This document shows, piece by piece, positions 1,012 to 36,129 of a DNA stretch of 36,129 nt. This DNA comes from a virus. The notes under the pieces are model-generated. The model worked only from the letters and a program-made list of their open reading frames with translations. It was not told where the DNA came from and ran no database searches. Numbering within the stretch: position 1 is the first letter of the stretch; every line of letters starts with the position of its first letter. The stretch covers positions 1-36,129 of the IMG/VR virus record IMGVR_UViG_3300042301_004503; one strand, written 5' to 3'. Made by a program: the position numbers and the translations under genes.

Positions 1012-2510
1012 ATGGACCAATTACAAATTTTTAAAGATATTAATAAACAAATATCTTATTTATCTTATAGAGATCCTTTTGTATATCATTTTACAAGTTC
1101 TCTAAACATAGTATTACATTCAGAATCTGATAAACCAAGTTTTCCATTAGCTGCTGTAGGAATTAATTCTAAGACATATAATTTTGAATTACATGTTGTA
1201 GTAGATGCATGGGAAAAATTAACTGATAAAATAAAACAAGGAGTTTTAATGCATGAATATCGTGCCGTTATATAGTAATATATAAAAGAAAGTGCTAAAC
1301 TGACGGAAACGTCTTCTAAAAATTAATCTACTAAGTTATGGTAGTGATACACATAATGGCTGAACTAATCACTCAGGTATAGTAAAAAAGATTAATTCAT
1401 GGAGAAAATCCGCAGCCAAGTCTCTTAAGTCTAAGAGAAAGGTTCAGAGCCCATAATGCACTATCCTACTGGGATAAAGGTATGGTCCGATCTTTATGGT
1501 GACATAAAGGAAGTTCATAAGAGAACTGCTGTAATTATTACAGTGACATATTGGAAATTCTCCATTTAGTTTTTTATCATTTAACAGAATTTACCTGGAT
1601 GAGTAAAGAAAATCATAAACTTGCTAACATTTCGACGGATTTAGAAATAAATCAAATGATTGATTCTCAATTACTTCCAGAATGGGGTATATTTTTAGAT
1701 CACTTTAGAAATAAATATCCTGAAATAGAATTTAAACCAAAAGAAGGTTCTGTTTATTATTTTAACCAATTAAAAAAGATCAAAGAGCTTAATTATGAAA
1801 TTCATATTAATGCTCAACATGGAGATAATTTTTCAGGTGAATTTGTTGATGAAAATGGTAATCCTATTACCGTTGATGAAGGAGTAAGAGAAATTATTGA
1901 AAGATCTTTAGAAAGAAAAATTGAAGAATTAATTGATTCTTTAAAACAAGCTGGAAATGCTCCTGCATATTGTGATAAATTGATAAAAGGTTTTGTTAAA
2001 CCTAAACCAGTTTTTAATTACCATAAGTATATTAAAACTTTTATAAACAACTCTACTGAGTATAATGTTAAGAAAAGTTATTACAAAGTAAATGCCAGAT
2101 TTCCAGATAATCCTAGAGTAGTTTTACAACCAAAAAGTAAAATATTAATGCTTTTAGATTTTTCTGGTTCAGTAGGAGCTGAAGATGAAGCTGCTATTTT
2201 AAATGAAGTATATCATACTTTAAAAAGTCAACCTTCTGAATTAAGAAGTTTTGATACAGCAATTTCAGAAAAAATAAATTATAAAAAAGGAGATCAAGTA
2301 TTTCCTAGAACTCAATGTGGTGGAACTTCATTTAATGTCTGCGTTGATTACTATGAAAGTAGAAAAGATATGACTACTTGTATAGTATTTACAGATGGTG
2401 AAGCTTATACACCTAGAGAAACTCGTAAAAACATTTTATGGGTAATCACTAAAGGAGGCTCAATTGAAGCTTTCAAAAATACTAGACACCAATATATCCA
2501 AATGAATTAA
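1012..2510 (+). CDS. Metallopeptidase-like/VWA protein (DUF2201 type), split by group I intron; exons 1012-1254 and 1554-2510
   Basis: Joining 1012-1254 to 1554-2510 gives one 399-residue protein in frame. The N-terminal part has a zinc-peptidase-like helix, H81-E82-I-L-H85, that is complete only after splicing. The C-terminal part is a von Willebrand A domain with a full MIDAS: D-F-S-G-S near residues 283-287, the Thr of G-G-T-S near 339 and T-D-G near 361-363. This layout matches the DUF2201 family, whose members are usually encoded beside a MoxR AAA+ ATPase, as here. Such pairs are thought to act as metal-loading or remodelling chaperones; the phage role is unknown. Unspliced RNA would stop at the TAG at 1273-1275, giving 87 residues without the VWA domain. 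The splice sites are inferred from frame, motif and group I rules. Confidence 0.85.
1255..1553 (+). ncRNA. Group I self-splicing intron 1 (299 nt, no ORF)
   Basis: The insert interrupts the VWA gene with an in-frame stop. Removing 1255-1553 leaves exon 1 ending in T (cat) and the intron ending in G, as group I chemistry requires. Core-like segments appear in the right order: a P/Q-like aaatccgcagccaag near 1407, an R-like aaggttcagagcccat near 1439, and an S-like aaggtatggtcc near 1477. CCAT in R pairs with ATGG in S as P7. A P8-like hairpin TATCC/GGATA lies between them. Downstream there are peripheral hairpins CTTTATG/CATAAAG (near 1492-1509) and CTGTAAT/ATTACAG (near 1528-1542). There is no room for a homing endonuclease ORF. 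The subgroup was not determined, although the R and S elements resemble those of group IA phage introns. Confidence 0.88.
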
Positions 2511-2528
2511 TTAAAAAAATATTTAAAA

Positions 2529-4219
2529 ATGGCAACTACATTTAAAAAATCAGAAATTACATATAGCAACAATCAAGTAAAAACATTTATTAAAAACGTA
2601 ATTGAATCTAATACGTTTAATCAACAAAGAGGTATCACTCCAATTGCTGTGAATTGTGAAGGTGTCCCAGGGATTTCTTGGTAGCAACTAAATATTAACT
2701 TATTTAATAGCTACATATATAAATAGAATAAAATTATTTATGTATGCCGGTTCCTGTAAAACTCCGTGAATCTGGGAACACCTTGAAGAAGGCAACCCTA
2801 ATCCAAGCCTTGTAGAAATACATTGAAGGATCAACGACTACCGTACACTTTCTTACCAAGTGGTGTTGAAGAAAATGAAACGGCACGAGTGCGGAGCAGT
2901 ATCTTATATCTACCAAGATTTAAAGGATATTGAAGAGATAGTCTGAACTGTATGTATAACAAAATAAGATACAGAAGTATAGGATAAAGAGCTTATACGA
3001 TAACATTGTCTGTGGCAAGACATCAATAATGAAACAAATAGCTAAAGAGCTAGATGCACATTTCTTTTTAGATTCTTTTGCTCAAAATACAGATCCAGGA
3101 GAATTAACTGGATTTCCTGTAGCTGAAACAAAAGTTACAAGAGACGGTAAAGAAGAATGGGTTAGTAATAACATTTTAACTCATTATATAACAGCTGGAT
3201 ATTCTGTATGTTCAGGAGATTCTTATAGAACTTCTTATGCGATGCCTAAGAAAATTAAAGAAATGTGGGAAATTAGAAATAATTATGAAGCTGATTTAAT
3301 TAAATTTGAAGCAGGTGAAATTACAGAAAAACCAGTAGAACCTATTATTATGTATATAATAGATGATGCATTTAGAGCTAATCCTCTTATTATGCAAGCT
3401 TCTATGGAAATAATGGAATCTCAAACTTGTGGATCTTGGAGTTTACCTAAGAATACTCATGTTATTTTAACTAATAACCCTGATGATGGTAATTATCAAG
3501 TTTCTTCTGCTGATAAAGCAATGAGTGATCGTTATATTACTATTAAAATGGTATGGTCTCATGAAGATTGGTCAGAACAAGCTGAAAATAAAATAGATGG
3601 TAGATGTATAATCTTTGTATTAAAACATCATGATACATTTTCTACTAAATTAGATGAAAATGGGTTAATTCCAGATAATTATGTTTCTCCGAGAATGTTA
3701 GAAAAATTCTTTAATTTAATTTCTCACATTGATGATTTTACAAATGCTGAGTCTAAAACTAAAATTTCAATGTTAGGAGCTTCTTCAATAGGAAGTAAAT
3801 TAACTGGAGAATTTATTGCATTTATTAATGAATCAGGTCATACTTTACCAAGTCCAGAAGATTTATTAATTAAATACTCAGATGATAAATTTGTTTCTAC
3901 TTTAGAAGAAGTAGTAGGATCAGTTGATGATATTAAAAAGATGAATAAAGCAGCTATTTCTATTATTACTAGAAGAATTAAAAATTATTTAGTTAATAAA
4001 ACAGATAAGATTGATGCTAAAACAGTTGAAAAAATGTCTGATAGAATTATTAAATTAGTTGATTCTAAACAAATTACATCTGATTTAGCTACTTTTTTAC
4101 TTAATGTATTTCAGCAAAATAACTTTAATAAAAATCCAAATTTGAAACAAATTTTCAAAAAAGTAGGAGTTAATCCTTCTTACACTAAGATTATGTTAAA
4201 GAATCAAGTAAATTACTAA
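2529..4219 (+). CDS. MoxR-family AAA+ ATPase, split by group I intron; exons 2529-2674 and 3013-4219
   Basis: Joining 2529-2674 to 3013-4219 gives a 450-residue ATPase in frame. The split codon rebuilds a perfect Walker A, G45-V-P-G-I-G-K-T52. Walker B is I-I-M-Y-I-I-D-D near 160-167, a sensor-1-like L-T-N-N is near 201-204, and a S-D-R-Y arginine-finger-like segment is near 221-223. This is the MoxR layout, and MoxR proteins form hexamers that work with VWA partners such as the gene 18 bases upstream. The likely function is ATP-driven remodelling or metal-cofactor assembly of a target; no target can be read here. Without splicing, translation stops at tag just after the P-loop start, giving 51 residues. 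The start at 2529 follows an A-rich leader and puts the ATPase core at the usual distance from the N-terminus. Confidence 0.88.
2675..3012 (+). ncRNA. Group I self-splicing intron 2 (338 nt, no ORF)
   Basis: The insert separates the two halves of a MoxR Walker A motif. Cutting after T2674 and after G3012 restores att-ggc-aag-aca (I-G-K-T) with the phase kept, and it follows the group I rule of exon-end T and intron-end G. Core-like segments are a P-like aaccctaatccaagcc near 2794, an R-like atcaacgactaccgtac near 2828 and an S-like agagatagtctgaac near 2934. P7 forms from GACTA in R and TAGTC in S. The intron is richer in G+C than its flanks. A 60-codon minus-strand ORF inside it has no features of an endonuclease. 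It differs clearly from intron 1 in core sequence. Confidence 0.85.
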
Positions 4220-14762: not shown

Positions 14763-15098
14763 ATGGAAAAAGAATTTATCCCTTATGAAATTGCATTAGC
14801 TTTAAAAGAATTAGGATTTGATGAACATTGTTTTGCGAAGTACTATCAACAAGATGGAAATGATGCATTTATTCAAATAGGTGAAAGAGAAATTAAAGAA
14901 GCTGAAAGTGCTGGTGATGATGTTACTTTTGAATGTGATGCACCACTTTATCAACAAATAATAAATTTTTTGTATATTTATAGTGATAAACAAATAGATA
15001 TAGAATTAAAAGGTAGTGATACTTATGAAGAAAGAATTAGAAAAATTGAACAAGGATGTAAAGATTTGTGGAATCTACAAAATAACAAGTCCAAATAA
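14763..15098 (+). CDS. Conserved phage hypothetical protein, 111 aa, 3' end overlapped by a homing endonuclease gene
   Basis: The start E-F-I-P-Y-E-I-A-L-A-L-K-E-L-G-F-D-E-H-C-F-A is a pattern I recall from many small proteins of Bacteroidota phages, with no known function. The last 25 residues are read from DNA that also encodes the start of the GIY-YIG endonuclease in another frame, including the GIY motif itself. The native C-terminus has therefore probably been replaced since the endonuclease gene arrived. Whether the product is still functional cannot be told from the sequence. Confidence 0.6.
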   Translation: MEKEFIPYEIALALKELGFDEHCFAKYYQQDGNDAFIQIGEREIKEAESAGDDVTFECDAPLYQQIINFLYIYSDKQIDIELKGSDTYEERIRKIEQGCKDLWNLQNNKSK

Positions 15099-15810
15099 TA
15101 AAGTTTATATAGGTCAATCTAATGATATTAGAAGAAGAATATTAACTTATTTTCAACCTAAAGGAGGTTCATCTCAAGTTAGATTAAAAGCTTCATTTAA
15201 TAAGCATGGTATTGACCTACATAATCTTATTATTCTTGAAGAATGTGAAGAAAGTTTATTAAACGAAAAAGAAAGATACTGGCAAGAACATTATAACGTA
15301 CTTAGTAAATCTGGACTTAATTGCAAAATGACAACAACTTTAGATAAATCAGGTACATTAAGCGATGAAACAAAAAAGTTAATTGGTAGTAAAACTAAAG
15401 GTACTACTAAAACTTGTCAATCTACTATGAAAAAAGTTTATCAATATTCAAAAGATGGTACATTCTTAAAAGAATATGTGTCATTAAGAGAAGCAGAAAG
15501 ACAAACAAAAATACATGCATCTTCCATAGGAAATTCTATTAAAGGAAGAAGTTTTTATAAATCTGCTGGAGGATACTTATGGAGTTATGACAAACTAAAA
15601 TCTCATTTTGGTCATGTAGGACCAATAGGTAAACCTATTCAGCAATGTAGTTTAGACAATAAAATAATTCAAGAATTTGATTCAATTTGTACTGCATCAA
15701 AACAACTCAACATAAGTAAATCAGGTATTATTAGATGCTGTAAAGGAAAACTAAAACAATGTAGTGGATTCACTTTTAAATACATAACAAATGAAAATGT
15801 TTCAATATAA
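15025..15810 (+). CDS. Free-standing GIY-YIG homing endonuclease with NUMOD-type repeats
   Basis: The 261-residue protein has the catalytic pair G16-I-Y and Y28-I-G in normal spacing, a conserved Arg cluster after it (D-I-R-R-R-I) and the catalytic-type Glu in N-E-K-E-R-Y-W-Q. Behind the nuclease comes a NUMOD3-like segment (S-D-E-T-K-K-L-I-G-S-K-T-K-G). Two NUMOD1/IENR1-like helix-turn-helix repeats follow, near residues 140-192 and 208-256, which would read the DNA target. Such proteins cut intron-less or endonuclease-less alleles and spread themselves. I prefer the ATG at 15025 to the GTG at 15016. It is not inside an intron; it starts within the previous gene and overlaps the next by 14 bases. 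Confidence 0.92.
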   Translation: MKKELEKLNKDVKICGIYKITSPNNKVYIGQSNDIRRRILTYFQPKGGSSQVRLKASFNKHGIDLHNLIILEECEESLLNEKERYWQEHYNVLSKSGLNCKMTTTLDKSGTLSDETKKLIGSKTKGTTKTCQSTMKKVYQYSKDGTFLKEYVSLREAERQTKIHASSIGNSIKGRSFYKSAGGYLWSYDKLKSHFGHVGPIGKPIQQCSLDNKIIQEFDSICTASKQLNISKSGIIRCCKGKLKQCSGFTFKYITNENVSI

Positions 15811-20651: not shown

Positions 20652-21200
20652 ATGTTAGAAAAATTAAAATTACTTCTTAATATAGAAGTTTGGAAACCAG
20701 TTAAAGGTTATGAAGGTTTATACGAAATATCTTCAAAAGGTAGGGTTAAAAGTTTAGCTAATAATAAAACTAAAAAAGAAAAAATCCTAAAAAACTGTAT
20801 AGGTGGAAGAAATGCAAGTACTTACTATCAAGTAGTTTTATGGAAAGATAAACAAAATACTGCATTTAGAGTACATCAATTAGTAGCTTCTCACTTTTTA
20901 AAAAAACCTAAAACAGAAGGTTACGTAGTAGATCATAAAGATTATGATAGATTTAATAATAATGCAACTAATTTACAATATATTACTTTTAGAAAAAATC
21001 TTTCTAAAGATAAAAGAGGTAATAGTAAACACACTGGAGTATGTTGGCACAAATCACATAAAAAGTTTATTGCTAATATTACAATAAATGGTAAGTTAAA
21101 ACATCTTGGTTACTTTAAAAAAGAATCAGATGCTAGAGATGCATATAATAAAGCTTTAAAAGAATTAGAAAATGATACAAAAAAACGATTGCTGGATTAG
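20652..21200 (+). CDS. HNH homing endonuclease with NUMOD4 and AP2-like domains
   Basis: The domain order is diagnostic. A NUMOD4 motif lies near residues 12-35 (E-V-W-K-P-V-K-G-Y-E-G-L-Y-E-I-S). The HNH nuclease near 75-117 has V-V-D-H-K-D and N-N-N-A-T-N-L-Q. An AP2-like DNA-binding domain lies near 128-172 (T-G-V-C-W-H, then W-x-A-like I-A-N-I and G-Y-F). Such genes are selfish elements in phages that cut related genomes lacking them. It stands between the SPL-like gene and the DUF5522-like gene and its 3' end overlaps the latter by 29 bases. It is not in an intron. Confidence 0.92.
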   Translation: MLEKLKLLLNIEVWKPVKGYEGLYEISSKGRVKSLANNKTKKEKILKNCIGGRNASTYYQVVLWKDKQNTAFRVHQLVASHFLKKPKTEGYVVDHKDYDRFNNNATNLQYITFRKNLSKDKRGNSKHTGVCWHKSHKKFIANITINGKLKHLGYFKKESDARDAYNKALKELENDTKKRLLD

Positions 21201-28756: not shown

Positions 28757-31700
28757 TTAACCACAGTTTTTTCTTAATATAAGTTCTTGTAAATAACTGT
28801 CATTATTAAATATAATTTCTTTAAATTTTTCAAGCTCTTCTGGATTAAAAGTAAAATGCGTATAAAGTGTATCTACTTTATCACCCCCTATTTCTTTAGA
28901 ATAAACTTTTTCTAAAAAAGATTTAGTTATAGTCTTAGGTAGAAAATCATCTAATGTTAAGTCTACTTTAACTTTTGATTTTAAAGAATCTTTATTTTCA
29001 ATTTTAGTAAAGGAACCTTTATTTTCTAAATCGATTAATGATTCATATAAAGATTTATTACTTGGATGAATAGGTTGTAAATAATCTTTAACTGTTTTAT
29101 AAAATACAGGTTCTGACATTTTACCATTGTTTTGCTTATATCTTACTGAAAATATTAATTGATTCTTAGAACCTGTTTTTGTAGGATTATTATAAAAACT
29201 AATATTAACATCATTTCCCTTATTTTTTAATACAGATTCTATTAAAGGAAAAGCTTTTAATTGATTTTTAACAATAGCTTCACTTATTACCTTTAAAGGA
29301 TTGTTTACATTTAAATTGATTTCTGAAACTTCTGGATCATTCTCTAAAAAAGAAAATTTTAAATTTGATAAAGAAGGTAAACCATATTGCTTTACAAAAC
29401 CTTGTAGAGTTTTTACACTATCTGAATTAAAACTACTTTCATCTTCTGTTAACTCTAAAGATCTTTCATCGATAGCTTCATTGTTTTTAAATACTGTAAT
29501 AAATATTTCCCCATCTACAGATTTTACAAATTTGAATTTGATATCATTATCTTTAACACTGCTTTCAAATTCTTTATCAAATTCTACAGTAATAAGATCG
29601 TTAGAATTATTAATTAAATAAGTTATATTATTTTTAACTTTTTTATACATAGTCTCATCGTCATCGATAATACTAGATACTGTTTTAAATGTATTCAGGT
29701 TTATTGAAACAGGGTCTATATCACTATATACTTTAAAGAAATTGTTTAGTACTATATTACTCAAATTAACCTCTTCGATTAATTTATTTAAGTCTTTGTT
29801 TTTAACATCATCTAAAGATTTACTTATTCTATATTTTAAATAAAAATTAGGTTCTGTAATTTTAGGTGAAAATACAGTATAATAGTTTTCTTTAACAGTA
29901 GTATATTGACCATTTACTTTATTGTAAAATAAATCAGCTAATAATTTTTCAAAATCTTTATAAAAAGATTCATTCATTTCTTTTAAAGGAATTTTTTCAT
30001 TTCCTTCTGAATCTACATACTTACCTTGTTCTAAATATGCTTTTAAAATATCTCCAAATTCTTTTTTAAAGTTACCTATATTTTGTAAATTGTTATACTT
30101 AAACCCTAGATTATGTAAATCTATTCTTAATTTATCTACATTAAAATCAACTGGTTTGGTACCATATAGTTTATTAATACTATTAAGTGAATAAAGTAAA
30201 GAGGTAAGATCAAAAGGTCTAGTATTATTTTTTGTAAGAGGTGCACTAATTCCACTAGATTGAAATGTTAAATCTGGTAAAGACGGTTCTATTTTTTTAA
30301 CTAGTTTTTCAAACATAGAAAGAATATCTTCTATATTATTTACTATCTGCTTTTTTTCAAACTCTGATATAAAATCTTTAGTAGTTTTATCAATTCTTCC
30401 ATCTGTTTCTAATAATAATCTAATTGTTTTATATTTTTCTAATAATGTTGTTGTTTTATTATAAGAACCTACTTCTACAATATTTAACAAGTTAAAGTTA
30501 GATTTTCTAGTTTTTTCTATTTCATAAAGAGTATACAAAATACTATCTACTATCTTAATAGCTTTTTCAGTAGTACCTGTAATATTAGCTACATTACTCT
30601 TTACAAATTGAGGATTAAAGATTATTTTAGATTCAAAATCAGAATTAATATCTTCTGTGTTATTATAATCATTAGTTAATTCAGTTACTGCTTGATATGT
30701 AAAAGTATCTTCAGTTTCATCTATTTTTCTATAAATAATATAATCAACTTGTTTTTCTTCATTTCTTTTTACATAAAGTTTAAAGTATTCATTTCCTGGA
30801 TTATTTTCTTTATTAAAAGAAATTACTGTATTGATACCTCTAACACTTTGTTCAATTGTAAAAGGGTTATTTTTTTCATAAACTATTTTACCAATAAGAC
30901 TAGGGTTATTTCTTAATATTTGATCTTGATAATATTTAACATAGTTGTTATAATTTCTAAGATCTTCTCCTTCTAATTCAGGATTTATATTTTTAAACTT
31001 ATGAATAGCTTGATTTAAATAAAAAGGAAGTCTTATTTTTTTCTCTATAGATGCAGGCATAAAAGGAAGAATACTTGCATATCCATACATACTAGTATTA
31101 GTAGTTAATGCATAAATTAAGAAATTTGATATAAATCTTTGATACTGATCATTTACTTCTTGATTTTCAAAAGATATTTCATAAGCTGTTTCAAAATCAC
31201 TTACTGTTTGAGTAAAAGTTTCTTTAGAATAAACTAATCCCATTAAAGGATTTTCTCCAGTTGTAAATTCAATTTTATCTAAGAACGGAGGTATAGTTAA
31301 ATTATTTTCTCTAAGAGTTTGTTTTAACTGAATTAATGAATTTTTTAATACATCTGTATTTTCATTAAAGTATTTTTTAATATCATTAATGTTTTCAGTT
31401 ATTTGAAATACATCTTTAAGGATAGAAGATCCACTTATTAAAAAGTTAAACGTACTTTCTCTTAATAAATCTAACTGAGCTTTTGATAATTTAGGATTAT
31501 TAGTAATCTCAGTAATAGTGTTAAAAGTAGACTTCATTAATTCAGAAGATTCAAATGTAAAGGTATTATCTTTATCTGCAAATAAACTATTAAATAATCT
31601 TTTATAATGATAAGATTTACCTGTAAATTCTTCATCTAAACGTTTTAATACGTCAGGGTGTATCTTTTTTGACATCTGAGCGTGTACATTATCTTCAAAA

Positions 31701-34700
31701 GAGTTTTCCATCAAAGTAGCATCTAGACCTTTTCTATAAGCAGATATGTGTTCCATTATAGAAGTTTGATTAGCAGATGAATCATTTAACTCAGCTAAGT
31801 TTGCTATTAATCCTATGTAATTACGTAGTAACATTTCTACATCTTTTCTATCTTCTTCTTTAAGTTTTTGTTTATTAATAAAAGTAGCTACACTTTCATA
31901 GTTATAAAAAGTACTATCTAAAATATCATCTATAAGATTTTTAAATATTCTAATAGCGTTTGGATTTTCTATTGTATTATATTCTGCTACATCATGTATA
32001 TATTTCAAATCAGCTTTGTAATTACCAGTTGTAATATCACTCATTGAAAACTCTTCGTAAGTTTCATAAGTAGGTTTAGGTTCATTATTTAAAAAAGCAT
32101 GAGTATTTACTAAGTTAAAGATTAATTTTTTATAAGTATTAGCAACCGTAGATTTTTTAGTGTCATCAAAAACTCCTCCTTGATTTTCTACTCTAGTTAA
32201 AGAATGATTTATGATTTTATTATTTACATAATCCATTGTCAATTGTAATGGTACGTGGGTAGTTAATTGTAAAACATAACTAGTATTTTCAGTAGTCAAT
32301 CCTATATTACTAGGATCTTGATTATTAGCAGCATCCACTGTTATATTCACAGCTTGTCTACTTAAATCTCTTAAAAAATAAACTTTCTTAGGATCAGCAG
32401 GGTCTTTTACATAAACTTTATCTAACTTATATAAACCTTCAGTGTTAACTAAATTTTCAGGTTCTTCTTCTAAAGTAAAATAATTAAAAGTCTTAGCGTC
32501 TTCTTGAGTTATATCTTCAAAATTTAAAATACTATTTAAGTTAAGATCTCCAAATTCTCTACCTATATCTTCAGTAATAGGTTTATCTCCGTAATAAAAA
32601 TACATAGGTCTAGGATTATATAAACCTATTCTTTGTCCAATTGCATTAATTTGAGACCACATTACAGCTATTCCTAACATCTTTTTAGCACCCATATTAT
32701 TATTAGTGATAAAAGATTGAAATACAGAAGAATTTACAGAATTACTTTGAGCTCTGTTAAACATTTCTAATATTTCATTAGTTTTATTAAAAGCAGGTTT
32801 TTTAATCTTTTCTTCTCTTTCCTTAAGTTTAGCTTTTATGTCTTCAACTTCTTTGTTTTCTTGAGGCGTTAAAACTTTATCATAATAATAAGGGCTTATG
32901 TATATGTTATAGAAAGTATCAATAATATCATTTTCTAAAGATTTTTTAGAAATAGGTAAAGCTTGATTAAAGTTTTCCTCAGTTAAACCTAATTGTTTAA
33001 ATTTTACTTTTTCTTTTAATGGTAATGTTTTTAAATAATCTTCTAAACTATCATATTTTCCTAATTTTTTTAAAGTAGGTAAGCCTTTTTCATTTTTACT
33101 AAGATTATAGTTACTGAATAATAAGTTAATTTTATCAACGTCAAAATCCGATCCCATAGATACAAGGATAATGTTTGGAACAATTGACATGTTACCATGC
33201 TCTGTAAGATCTGTAAAACCCACTATTTTAAATGGATATCCAGAAGAAGGACCTTGATAAGGAATACGATAACCTATTGTTTTTAACAAATCTGGATCTA
33301 TTAAATCAGTATTTAAAGTACCATCTTCATTAGTAAAATCTTTTAAGCTTAAAGGGTTTTTATTATTATCAAAGAAGTTAAAAGGAACTACTATTTCAGC
33401 AGGTAATACAGTATAATTTTCAGATAATTCTTTTAACTCTTCCTCCATTGCTTTATATAAACCCTTTTTTCTCAACTCCTCATCTTTAATATTTTTAAAA
33501 GCAAGTAAAGGATTATTTATCATATCCTTTAACTCTGAATGTCTTTTTAATAAAGCACTATTTTCAGCTTCATTTAATTCTACACCATTAGCATCTCCTA
33601 ATCTAATAGGTTTTAAATTTTCTGCTTTAGATTTAGAAGATATTAAAGCAATTCCTTTTTGAGGTATTACATCTGTTACATTATCTTCATTTAATTCTAG
33701 AGAAGGTTCAAATGTAAATACATCTGGTGCTTGAATAGTAGATAAACCTGGAAATTTTAAGTTTAATACTTTTTTAGTAAATGCAGATGTTAATTTAAAT
33801 TCAAGTCCTCTAATAGAAGATAAAGGCTTTAAAAATCCCTGTCTAACTAAACCATCTTCTCCTGTATAATCAATTATTTCTAAGTTTTCTTCTAAGTCTA
33901 AATCATCTTTTGATACATTTAATAAGAATCTTTTAAATCCTGCAAAGTTTTCATCTGCTTTAAAACTTAATTTTAAATCAGGAGAATTTATTTTTATTTT
34001 ATTTAAATCTTCTTTAGAGTTTATATTATCTAAATCTATAATATTTTCACCATCTAACAAAGAAGCTCCAAATTCTTTTAAGAAATCTTTTAATTTTAAT
34101 AAAGTTAAATTAGATAAGTCATTATATAAAGAATCTGCTACAGTATTCATATTAGAATTTTTACCAGATTTGTCTATAATAGGTACATTTAAAGGAGTTC
34201 CTCCTGGTAAACTTACTACCATTTGTGTAGCTAAGGCTACTTTCTCTTTAAAATCATTTTGAGTATTTAACTGATTAAATCTATAATTATAATTATTTAT
34301 AGTGATGTTTGTTTTTCTAGTATTAAAACTTAATTCTTGGTCTTTTTTATTAAATTTAAAGAAGTCTTTATTGATTGAGTACTTACCATTTACATTTGTG
34401 ATTAAAGGAGTCTTATTATCAGATAAATGCTGTTTAATACCAGATGAAAATATTGTAGTATGTATATTGTTATATAAAGACATTTCTCTCCATTGTCCTA
34501 AGAGATTATTAGTTTTATAATTAGATCCAACTAAAAACTGAGCACTTTTTAAATAGTTTACATAAGTAGAAGTATCTGTAATTTGAATTCTAGACGCCTC
34601 CATAGGTTTTAATGGATTCAATACTAAATCAACTACAGTTAAAGGAATCATTTCTTTTGTTCCATCTGAATTAACTTTTTCAAATTGAGGATTATCTTTT

Positions 34701-36129
34701 TCTACTTCTTTAAAAATTTCTTCACTTTGACTGAAATAACTATTAAAAGGAAGTTCTGCTTTATTTTGAAAAATAATTATATCTCCATCTTCATCTTTTG
34801 TAACTTCAAAATTTAATGTAGTATCTTTACCAAGAATATTTTTAACTATAGTAAAAGCTTTTTTATTACTTTTTAAAGTTTTTACAGCTTCTTTTTGAAC
34901 ACTTTTTCTAAACTCATAGTAATCTCTTTCATTTAAGTGTAACCATTTTAAAACAGACATTCTTTGATTATTACCAGCTATAAAACCATTTGCTAATTGT
35001 GTATTGAAAGCTGATATAGTAGTCATTAATTGAGCTGCATCTGTAGCATCTTTTTCTTTCATAAATTGATCATACATAAGATTTGCTAAATCTTTTTTAT
35101 CTTGTGTATAATTTTCTGAAAAAACTAATTCTCCGTTTTCTACAGTATAATCGGTTCCAGCAATAGATAATATTAACTCTTTAGCTAAAGGTTCTTTTAT
35201 TTTTAAATCTGCAGAAATAGCTGTTAAATAAAATTCCTCTTCATAGTTAAATAAATCTCCACCTCCTGATAATTTAGCATACCTTTTAGTAATCTCTTCT
35301 GCTAATTTCTTTAACTCATCAAAGCTTACAATATCTACATTATTTTGTTCTTCATTTAATTTTAATTTAAATAATTGTTGAAAAAAAGTAGCACCTGTTT
35401 TTTCTTTTATTAAAGTCTTTTGATCTTTAGCGGTATAAGCTGAATCTTCTATAATACCTAATACTTCATACTCTGTATTAACTGCTTTATCAGCTAAAAC
35501 TAAATATTTTGCTACATCAAATATTAATTTTCTAGCAATATTACCATGAGTTTCTGAAGATTCTAATCCTAAAGAATCATTCCAATTTGAATCATAATAA
35601 GTAGTAATTACTGTTTCTTCTATTTTAGGTTGATTTGAACTAAAGTCTTCTGTTTCTTCTGAACTATAAAGATTAAAAATCTTTTTAATTTTTTTAAACG
35701 TAGTTTCATTTACATTAAATAAATCTTGTAAACCTGTTGCGTTTACATTAATAACCCCTAGTTCTTTTAATTGATTTATTTTATCATGGATCTCAGTTAA
35801 AAATGAAACTTGAGGTATAGTTTCATTTTTTATAAAATCAGAATAAGCTTCAAAATTTAATTTTTCTAACTGTAAATTTGCTGTTAAACTATTTACTAAA
35901 CTTTCTAATTTTTTAACAGAAGTTGACTCTTTATTATTGGCTATATTTTGATACCAATTTACAAACTCTTCTGTGTTATTTAATAATGGAAAAGTATTTA
36001 TGAAACAAGCTGTTGGTATTAAAAGAGTCCCATCTTTCATTTTAGGATGATTTGGACTCAAATCTTCAAAGTTGTTTTCTTTAGCTTCTTTCCATAAAGC
36101 TTCTATTCTTTGAAGCTCTTGTTTAACTC
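28757..36129 (-). CDS. crAss-like virion RNA polymerase, giant protein (5' end outside the window)
   Basis: The frame stays open to the right edge, so the product has at least 2456 residues and its start is off-window; the TTG at 36061 is internal. Counted from that TTG, R932-I-P-Y-Q-G-P-S-S and G-S-D972-F-D974-V-D976-K-I-N form the hallmark pair of the crAss-like phage RNA polymerase. The three aspartates are the DxDxD metal-binding loop of a double-psi beta-barrel active site, related to cellular two-barrel RNA polymerases and to eukaryotic RNA-dependent RNA polymerases. In phage phi14:2 the homologue (gp66) is packaged and transcribes early genes. The long N- and C-terminal parts have no recognisable motif. 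The bases beyond 36061 continue the same frame without a stop. Confidence 0.88.
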   Translation of the reverse strand, partial: VKQELQRIEALWKEAKENNFEDLSPNHPKMKDGTLLIPTACFINTFPLLNNTEEFVNWYQNIANNKESTSVKKLESLVNSLTANLQLEKLNFEAYSDFIKNETIPQVSFLTEIHDKINQLKELGVINVNATGLQDLFNVNETTFKKIKKIFNLYSSEETEDFSSNQPKIEETVITTYYDSNWNDSLGLESSETHGNIARKLIFDVAKYLVLADKAVNTEYEVLGIIEDSAYTAKDQKTLIKEKTGATFFQQLFKLKLNEEQNNVDIVSFDELKKLAEEITKRYAKLSGGGDLFNYEEEFYLTAISADLKIKEPLAKELILSIAGTDYTVENGELVFSENYTQDKKDLANLMYDQFMKEKDATDAAQLMTTISAFNTQLANGFIAGNNQRMSVLKWLHLNERDYYEFRKSVQKEAVKTLKSNKKAFTIVKNILGKDTTLNFEVTKDEDGDIIIFQNKAELPFNSYFSQSEEIFKEVEKDNPQFEKVNSDGTKEMIPLTVVDLVLNPLKPMEASRIQITDTSTYVNYLKSAQFLVGSNYKTNNLLGQWREMSLYNNIHTTIFSSGIKQHLSDNKTPLITNVNGKYSINKDFFKFNKKDQELSFNTRKTNITINNYNYRFNQLNTQNDFKEKVALATQMVVSLPGGTPLNVPIIDKSGKNSNMNTVADSLYNDLSNLTLLKLKDFLKEFGASLLDGENIIDLDNINSKEDLNKIKINSPDLKLSFKADENFAGFKRFLLNVSKDDLDLEENLEIIDYTGEDGLVRQGFLKPLSSIRGLEFKLTSAFTKKVLNLKFPGLSTIQAPDVFTFEPSLELNEDNVTDVIPQKGIALISSKSKAENLKPIRLGDANGVELNEAENSALLKRHSELKDMINNPLLAFKNIKDEELRKKGLYKAMEEELKELSENYTVLPAEIVVPFNFFDNNKNPLSLKDFTNEDGTLNTDLIDPDLLKTIGYRIPYQGPSSGYPFKIVGFTDLTEHGNMSIVPNIILVSMGSDFDVDKINLLFSNYNLSKNEKGLPTLKKLGKYDSLEDYLKTLPLKEKVKFKQLGLTEENFNQALPISKKSLENDIIDTFYNIYISPYYYDKVLTPQENKEVEDIKAKLKEREEKIKKPAFNKTNEILEMFNRAQSNSVNSSVFQSFITNNNMGAKKMLGIAVMWSQINAIGQRIGLYNPRPMYFYYGDKPITEDIGREFGDLNLNSILNFEDITQEDAKTFNYFTLEEEPENLVNTEGLYKLDKVYVKDPADPKKVYFLRDLSRQAVNITVDAANNQDPSNIGLTTENTSYVLQLTTHVPLQLTMDYVNNKIINHSLTRVENQGGVFDDTKKSTVANTYKKLIFNLVNTHAFLNNEPKPTYETYEEFSMSDITTGNYKADLKYIHDVAEYNTIENPNAIRIFKNLIDDILDSTFYNYESVATFINKQKLKEEDRKDVEMLLRNYIGLIANLAELNDSSANQTSIMEHISAYRKGLDATLMENSFEDNVHAQMSKKIHPDVLKRLDEEFTGKSYHYKRLFNSLFADKDNTFTFESSELMKSTFNTITEITNNPKLSKAQLDLLRESTFNFLISGSSILKDVFQITENINDIKKYFNENTDVLKNSLIQLKQTLRENNLTIPPFLDKIEFTTGENPLMGLVYSKETFTQTVSDFETAYEISFENQEVNDQYQRFISNFLIYALTTNTSMYGYASILPFMPASIEKKIRLPFYLNQAIHKFKNINPELEGEDLRNYNNYVKYYQDQILRNNPSLIGKIVYEKNNPFTIEQSVRGINTVISFNKENNPGNEYFKLYVKRNEEKQVDYIIYRKIDETEDTFTYQAVTELTNDYNNTEDINSDFESKIIFNPQFVKSNVANITGTTEKAIKIVDSILYTLYEIEKTRKSNFNLLNIVEVGSYNKTTTLLEKYKTIRLLLETDGRIDKTTKDFISEFEKKQIVNNIEDILSMFEKLVKKIEPSLPDLTFQSSGISAPLTKNNTRPFDLTSLLYSLNSINKLYGTKPVDFNVDKLRIDLHNLGFKYNNLQNIGNFKKEFGDILKAYLEQGKYVDSEGNEKIPLKEMNESFYKDFEKLLADLFYNKVNGQYTTVKENYYTVFSPKITEPNFYLKYRISKSLDDVKNKDLNKLIEEVNLSNIVLNNFFKVYSDIDPVSINLNTFKTVSSIIDDDETMYKKVKNNITYLINNSNDLITVEFDKEFESSVKDNDIKFKFVKSVDGEIFITVFKNNEAIDERSLELTEDESSFNSDSVKTLQGFVKQYGLPSLSNLKFSFLENDPEVSEINLNVNNPLKVISEAIVKNQLKAFPLIESVLKNKGNDVNISFYNNPTKTGSKNQLIFSVRYKQNNGKMSEPVFYKTVKDYLQPIHPSNKSLYESLIDLENKGSFTKIENKDSLKSKVKVDLTLDDFLPKTITKSFLEKVYSKEIGGDKVDTLYTHFTFNPEELEKFKEIIFNNDSYLQELILRKNCG

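What the first reader, a model, noticed from the sequence alone, without database searches (positions are those of the whole stretch)
1012..4219. Two group I introns interrupt the catalytic motifs of an adjacent VWA/MoxR pair
Seen directly: both genes of one functional pair carry an in-frame-stop insert. Removing each by T|...G| rules restores a perfect HExxH (1252-1254 joined to 1554-1565) and a perfect Walker A (I49 codon split at 2674/3013). Both proteins are non-functional unless spliced, and unspliced RNAs end as short peptides of 87 and 51 residues. It is established that phage introns favour conserved active-site codons. Finding both members of a chaperone pair interrupted is unusual, and splicing could gate the activity of the whole complex.
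Basis: partly seen in the sequence, partly recalled or inferred. Interest (0 to 1): 0.85.

Follow-up and report, generated by a model that had tools for sequence, protein, structure and literature searches.

The report
Paired phage introns in chaperone genes
A crAss-like phage carries two self-splicing-type group I introns inside the catalytic motifs of neighbouring protease-like and ATPase genes; the introns are ordinary mobile elements, but comparison with related phages shows that this gene pair is a repeated landing spot for them.

Summary
Two group I introns, 1255-1553 (299 nt) and 2675-3012 (338 nt), interrupt a VWA/DUF2201 metallopeptidase-like gene inside HExxH and the adjacent MoxR-type ATPase gene inside Walker A. 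Rfam RF00028 scores are 61.6 and 46.5 bits (E 4e-17 and 1.5e-12; the second is below the 50-bit curated cut-off). Both fold with strong covariation, including the P3/P7 pseudoknot, and both have a P1 helix with U.G at the proposed 5' splice site and a terminal G. The spliced proteins align unbroken to intronless homologues.

The gating idea is not supported. In about 150 clusters of related loci, VWA is interrupted in about 11 of 143 and MoxR in about 10 of 126, at some nine sites beside conserved motifs. Most of these introns carry homing endonucleases: LAGLIDADG in VWA, GIY-YIG in MoxR. Phages 93-97% identical differ by clean presence or absence. Double interruption is rare (window; L160/L171) but about as frequent as independence predicts. 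The window's introns are HEG-less members of mobile families that repeatedly invade one conserved gene pair.

Caveat: intron 1 has one C.U mismatch in P7, unseen in its aligned relatives; splicing was not testable.

The parts
1012..1254 (+). VWA/DUF2201 metallopeptidase-like gene, exon 1 (ends ...LMH81)
   Evidence: Joined ORF; Pfam PF13203/PF09967; continuous with intronless homologues
1255..1553 (+). Group I intron 1 (299 nt, no homing endonuclease), inserted between His81 and Glu82 of HExxH
   Evidence: RF00028 61.6 bits; covariation with 8 related introns; T1254 at the 5' site, G1553 at the 3' end
1251..1265 (+). P1 of intron 1: exon GCAU (1251-1254) with GUGC (1262-1265), U.G at the splice site
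   Evidence: Sequence; U.G kept in 9 of 9 aligned introns, the other three P1 pairs vary on both sides
1449..1487 (+). P7 of intron 1: GCCCAUA (1449-1455) with UAUGGUC (1481-1487); second pair C1450.U1486 where the eight aligned relatives have A-U
   Evidence: pair at columns 258/300: AU 8, other 1
1554..2510 (+). VWA gene, exon 2 (EILH..., DxSxS motif)
2529..2674 (+). MoxR-type AAA ATPase gene, exon 1 (ends GVPG + AT of the Ile49 codon)
2675..3012 (+). Group I intron 2 (338 nt, no homing endonuclease), inserted in the Ile49 codon of Walker A
   Evidence: RF00028 46.5 bits, E 1.5e-12, below gathering; covariation with 4 related introns; same site used in L020, L164, L166, L231
2668..2756 (+). 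P1 of intron 2: exon CAGGGAU (2668-2674) with GUUCCUG (2750-2756), 75-nt loop 2675-2749 (in L020 and L164 the equivalent loop holds a GIY-YIG gene)
   Evidence: Sequence; compensated in L020 (CUGGGAU/GUUCCAG) and L164 (CUGGGAU/GUCCCAG)
3013..4219 (+). MoxR-type ATPase gene, exon 2 (T completes Ile49, then GKT)

Best explanation
Two group I introns of mobile type, both without a homing endonuclease gene, sit in the HExxH motif of a VWA metallopeptidase-like cochaperone gene and the Walker A motif of the adjacent MoxR-type ATPase gene of a crAss-like phage. Each pre-mRNA is expected to self-splice by guanosine attack at U1254|1255 or U2674|2675, then exon ligation after G1553 or G3012, restoring both proteins (inferred). 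The introns reached these sites by homing or intron transfer aimed at the conserved codons of the pair (inferred), which is a recurrent intron target in related phages (shown by comparison). HEG-bearing introns occupy the same or neighbouring sites in relatives (shown); loss of a HEG from the window's copies is inferred. No regulatory role is needed.
For: Rfam matches. P1 U.G and terminal G at the frame-restoring junctions. Covariation over 67 and 42 pairs: 91.2% and 93.2% of cells paired, 30 and 23 pairs with changes on both sides, 0/500 shuffles on every measure. Intronless homologues. Introns at the same Walker A codon carry GIY-YIG genes in the P1 loop (L020, L164). Introns at or within 10 nt of the HExxH site carry LAGLIDADG genes, in the P6 loop. 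Near-identical phages differ by presence or absence. L160 and, more weakly, the window keep codons resembling the HEG C-terminus (PRKRFNDYNKLP; RERFRAHNAL).
Against: No RNA data. Intron 1 has a C.U mismatch in P7, next to the pair expected to bind guanosine; it could weaken splicing, or be a metagenome error. Intron 2 is below Rfam's gathering score, and its P4 has two unpaired positions. No relative with an intron exactly at the window's VWA site was found. The HEG-fossil reading of intron 1 is a short match made by eye.
Confidence: 0.9

Rival explanations
1. The two introns act as a regulatory gate: splicing conditions decide whether the protease-like/ATPase complex is made.
For: Both catalytic motifs are split, and both introns lack a HEG yet keep a group I fold, so something may keep them.
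Against: Introns are optional in near-identical phages; most relatives have neither; double interruption matches independence; endonucleases are known to target conserved codons, which explains the sites without regulation (PMC3984707).
Confidence: 0.05
2. Intron 1 is catalytically damaged (P7 C.U mismatch), so the VWA gene is poorly expressed or needs a protein helper.
For: The other eight introns in the alignment have A-U at that pair; P7 strands picked out by pattern in further relatives are of the GACTA type except L025.
Against: The VWA exons keep the residues invariant among distant homologues; P1 and the terminal G are intact; another P7 pair shows a compensated U-A to C-G change; could be an assembly error.
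Confidence: 0.2
3. The inserts are assembly artefacts or non-intron insertions.
For: Single metagenome record; whole-window cmscan missed them.
Against: Homologous introns at the same Walker A codon, and within 10 nt of the HExxH site, in independent contigs, with covariation.
Confidence: 0.01

Closest known systems
Group I introns of crAss-like phages (Yutin et al. 2021, PMC7886860)
   Same: [quoted passage not shown] an AAA ATPase, ATP_43b, is among the listed targets
   Different: That paper's main text does not mention MoxR, VWA or metallopeptidase; its introns were found mainly through endonuclease domains, so HEG-less ones like these would tend to be missed. Whether ATP_43b is this MoxR gene was not tested
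GIY-YIG and LAGLIDADG introns in relatives (L020, L164, L056, L099)
   Same: Same gene pair, same or neighbouring sites, related cores
   Different: Relatives carry a HEG in the P1 loop (MoxR) or P6 loop (VWA); the window's copies have none
HEG-less VWA intron of L160/L171
   Same: About 300 nt, HExxH motif, related core, no HEG
   Different: Inserted 5 nt further downstream; P7 has GACTA/TAGTC without the C.U mismatch
Introns in phage terminase, NrdD and helicase genes (Bacillus phages Yucatan and fHSPT3, Enterococcus VRE9_1, PhiCrAssBcn14)
   Same: Intron core 73-80% identical in the aligned stretches
   Different: Other host genes
Phage MoxR-vWA-metallopeptidase pair (Iyer et al. 2021, PMC7824862)
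   Same: Same domain pair, VWA fused to an N-terminal metallopeptidase domain; proposed role in virion assembly
   Different: Described in jumbo phages; the passages read do not mention introns in the pair

Membership tests
Group I intron (intron 1) | Match to the group I covariance model above the curated cut-off | tested here: met
   RF00028 61.6 bits, gathering 50
Group I intron (intron 1) | P1 with U.G at the 5' splice site, and terminal G | tested here: met
   GCAU|/GUGC, G1553; U.G in 9/9
Group I intron (intron 1) | P3-P9 core with covariation | tested here: met
   91.2% of cells paired over the whole structure, 0/500 shuffles
Group I intron (intron 1) | Fully paired P7 (guanosine-binding helix) | tested here: inconclusive
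   6 of 7 pairs; one C.U mismatch
Group I intron (intron 2) | Match to the group I covariance model above the curated cut-off | tested here: not met
   46.5 bits against 50; E 1.5e-12. The structural tests of the next row are met, so I still file it as group I
Group I intron (intron 2) | P1 with U.G, terminal G, core with covariation, paired P7 | tested here: met
   CAGGGAU/GUUCCUG with compensated relatives; 93.2% of cells paired, P7 5/5 pairs in all five
Group I intron (both) | GTP-dependent self-splicing | not testable with these tools
   Needs RNA
Mobile (homing) group I intron | Encodes a homing endonuclease | tested here: not met
   No endonuclease-sized ORF inside either window intron; HEG-bearing relatives exist
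MoxR-vWA-metallopeptidase pair | Adjacent MoxR-type AAA ATPase and VWA protein with an HExxH domain | tested here: met
   Pfam AAA_3 and DUF2201_N above cut-off, DUF2201 below it; homologous pairs in AR9 and BpSp
crAss-like phage | RNA polymerase related to that of crAss-like phages | tested here: met
   2434-aa protein matches crAss002 and phi14:2 RNAP, E about 1e-6, over 4-6% of its length only

The most novel reading that the evidence does not exclude
The two HEG-less introns are kept because their splicing jointly regulates assembly of the VWA/MoxR machine, turning a repeated parasite landing site into a control point.
Probability: 0.05. Interest if true: 0.8.

Novelty: new member of a known kind. 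Interest (0 to 1): 0.45.

Why it matters
It shows a phage gene pair that is hit again and again by group I introns at several neighbouring sites in catalytic motifs, with empty and filled alleles in near-identical phages. That makes site choice, HEG loss and the fate of HEG-less introns comparable within one lineage. It also warns that both genes can be misread as fragments unless introns are removed, and that endonuclease-based surveys tend to miss HEG-less introns.

Tried and rejected
Whole-window Rfam scans gave no intron; a shorter stretch and the genome search did. Single-protein scans of IMG/VR found no relatives; alignment queries did. Gaps near residue 95 of MoxR in L020, L028, L035, L047 and L056 looked like introns but are in-frame protein insertions. 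The window's free-standing GIY-YIG gene (15016-15810) is only about 23-30% identical to the MoxR-intron endonucleases, so I do not claim that it mobilises intron 2. Splice positions shifted by up to 3 nt at the GAA repeat flanking intron 1 were rejected because only 1254/1553 keeps the U.G and the terminal G. A core tree put the window's Walker A intron nearer to introns at other sites (L072, L001) than to L020/L164 at the same site, but short, partly HEG-trimmed alignments make this weak.

Full report
Observation. The ORFs stop after 87 and 51 residues. Removing 1255-1553 and 2675-3012 gives 399- and 450-residue proteins with HEILH and GVPGIGKTS. Pfam recognises the metallopeptidase and AAA domains only in the joined proteins. 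Both align without a break across the junctions to intronless phage homologues; H81, E82, H85 and G48, K51 are invariant in those small alignments of six.

RNA evidence. RF00028 matches at 1245-1509 (61.6 bits) and 2695-2962 (46.5 bits, below the curated 50); larger scans missed both. I drew the group I helices by hand on alignments of related introns with HEGs trimmed. VWA type: 9 introns, 67 pairs, 91.2% of cells paired, 30 pairs with changes on both sides. MoxR type: 5 introns, 42 pairs, 93.2%, 23 pairs. No shuffle of 500 reached any measure, and slid versions stay at 29-51% paired. The structures were derived from the window sequence, which by itself favours them on cells paired; the changes on both sides are the stronger evidence.

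Splice sites. Intron 1 has P1 GCAU/GUGC with U1254.G1262. Intron 2 has P1 CAGGGAU/GUUCCUG, with 75 nt between the splice site and the guide; L020 and L164 show CUGGGAU/GUUCCAG and CUGGGAU/GUCCCAG. In L020 and L164 a GIY-YIG gene fills that loop.

Weak point. P7 of intron 1 reads GCCCAUA/UAUGGUC. Relative to the commonest form, one pair shows a compensated change (U-A to C-G) and one is a C.U mismatch, C1450.U1486. This may be a real lesion or an assembly error.

Relatives. Three alignment-based scans gave 237 IMG/VR loci, some from the same contigs. With the reference phages they form 151 clusters at 95% identity. Interrupted: VWA 11/143, MoxR 10/126; both genes readable in 124. The script counts two clusters as 'both', but in one (L025/L056) different members carry the two introns; the other, L160/L171, is a true double. 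One flagged VWA case, L009 (a Listeria phage), was not examined, and L095's MoxR interruption was found only later by hand, so the counts are approximate. Expected doubles under independence: about 0.9.

Sites. VWA: codon 78 (L099-L101); H81|E82 (window); codon 83 (L056, L065, L067, L074, L076, L079, L080, L160, L171, L226, L230); near codon 110 (L230); near codon 330 (L226, L244). MoxR: Walker A codon 49 (window, L020, L164, L166, L231); GDL|VGFP (L139, L145); the Walker B region (L021, L033, L072, L160, L171); just after it (L025, L095). Endonuclease type: LAGLIDADG in the three VWA-intron proteins scanned, GIY-YIG in the four MoxR-intron proteins scanned. The three Walker A endonucleases (L020, L164, L231) are 48-54% identical to each other.

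Mobility. L025 and L056 are about 96% identical, yet each has an intron the other lacks. L018 lacks both introns of L160 at 93-97% identity.

Elsewhere in genomes. In a hand-picked set of 36 records, 20 showed no interruption of the pair (about 2.2 Mb, summed by hand) and only two of these hold an RF00028 match anywhere; one 145-kb relative (L072's record) has 12. This suggests, without a formal test, that the pair is a hotspot outside intron-rich genomes. The same search missed the introns of L099-L101, so it is not fully sensitive.

Context. The pair was proposed as a chaperone-cochaperone for virion assembly in jumbo phages (PMC7824862). Intron density in crAss-like phages is known (PMC7886860). 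Homing endonucleases are known to target conserved codons (PMC3984707). The only held paper with both 'MoxR' and 'group I intron' is, by title and abstract, about gene inactivation in a Clostridium.

How it most likely works. Shown: intron structure, boundaries that restore both proteins, intronless and HEG-bearing relatives, presence/absence among near-identical phages. Inferred: self-splicing in the infected cell, arrival by homing or transfer, HEG loss. Not shown: any effect of splicing on the activity of the pair.

Noticed in passing
L072:5001-6155: The VWA frame of a 145-kb relative has one in-frame TGA where relatives have Trp, which would fit TGA recoding; its record also has 12 RF00028 matches.
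   Followed up: partly
window 15016-15810 and 20652-21200: Free-standing GIY-YIG/NUMOD and HNH-type homing endonuclease genes in the window.
   Followed up: partly
window 28757-36061 (-): 2434-aa protein with a DFDVDK motif; short match to crAss-like RNA polymerases.
   Followed up: partly
L230:700-2975 and L226: VWA genes that appear to carry two introns each, by tblastn gaps and junction sequence; cmscan of these loci gave no match at E 0.01.
   Followed up: partly
L025, L028, L035, L047, L056 (MoxR after residue about 95): MoxR proteins with a long in-frame charged insertion.
   Followed up: no
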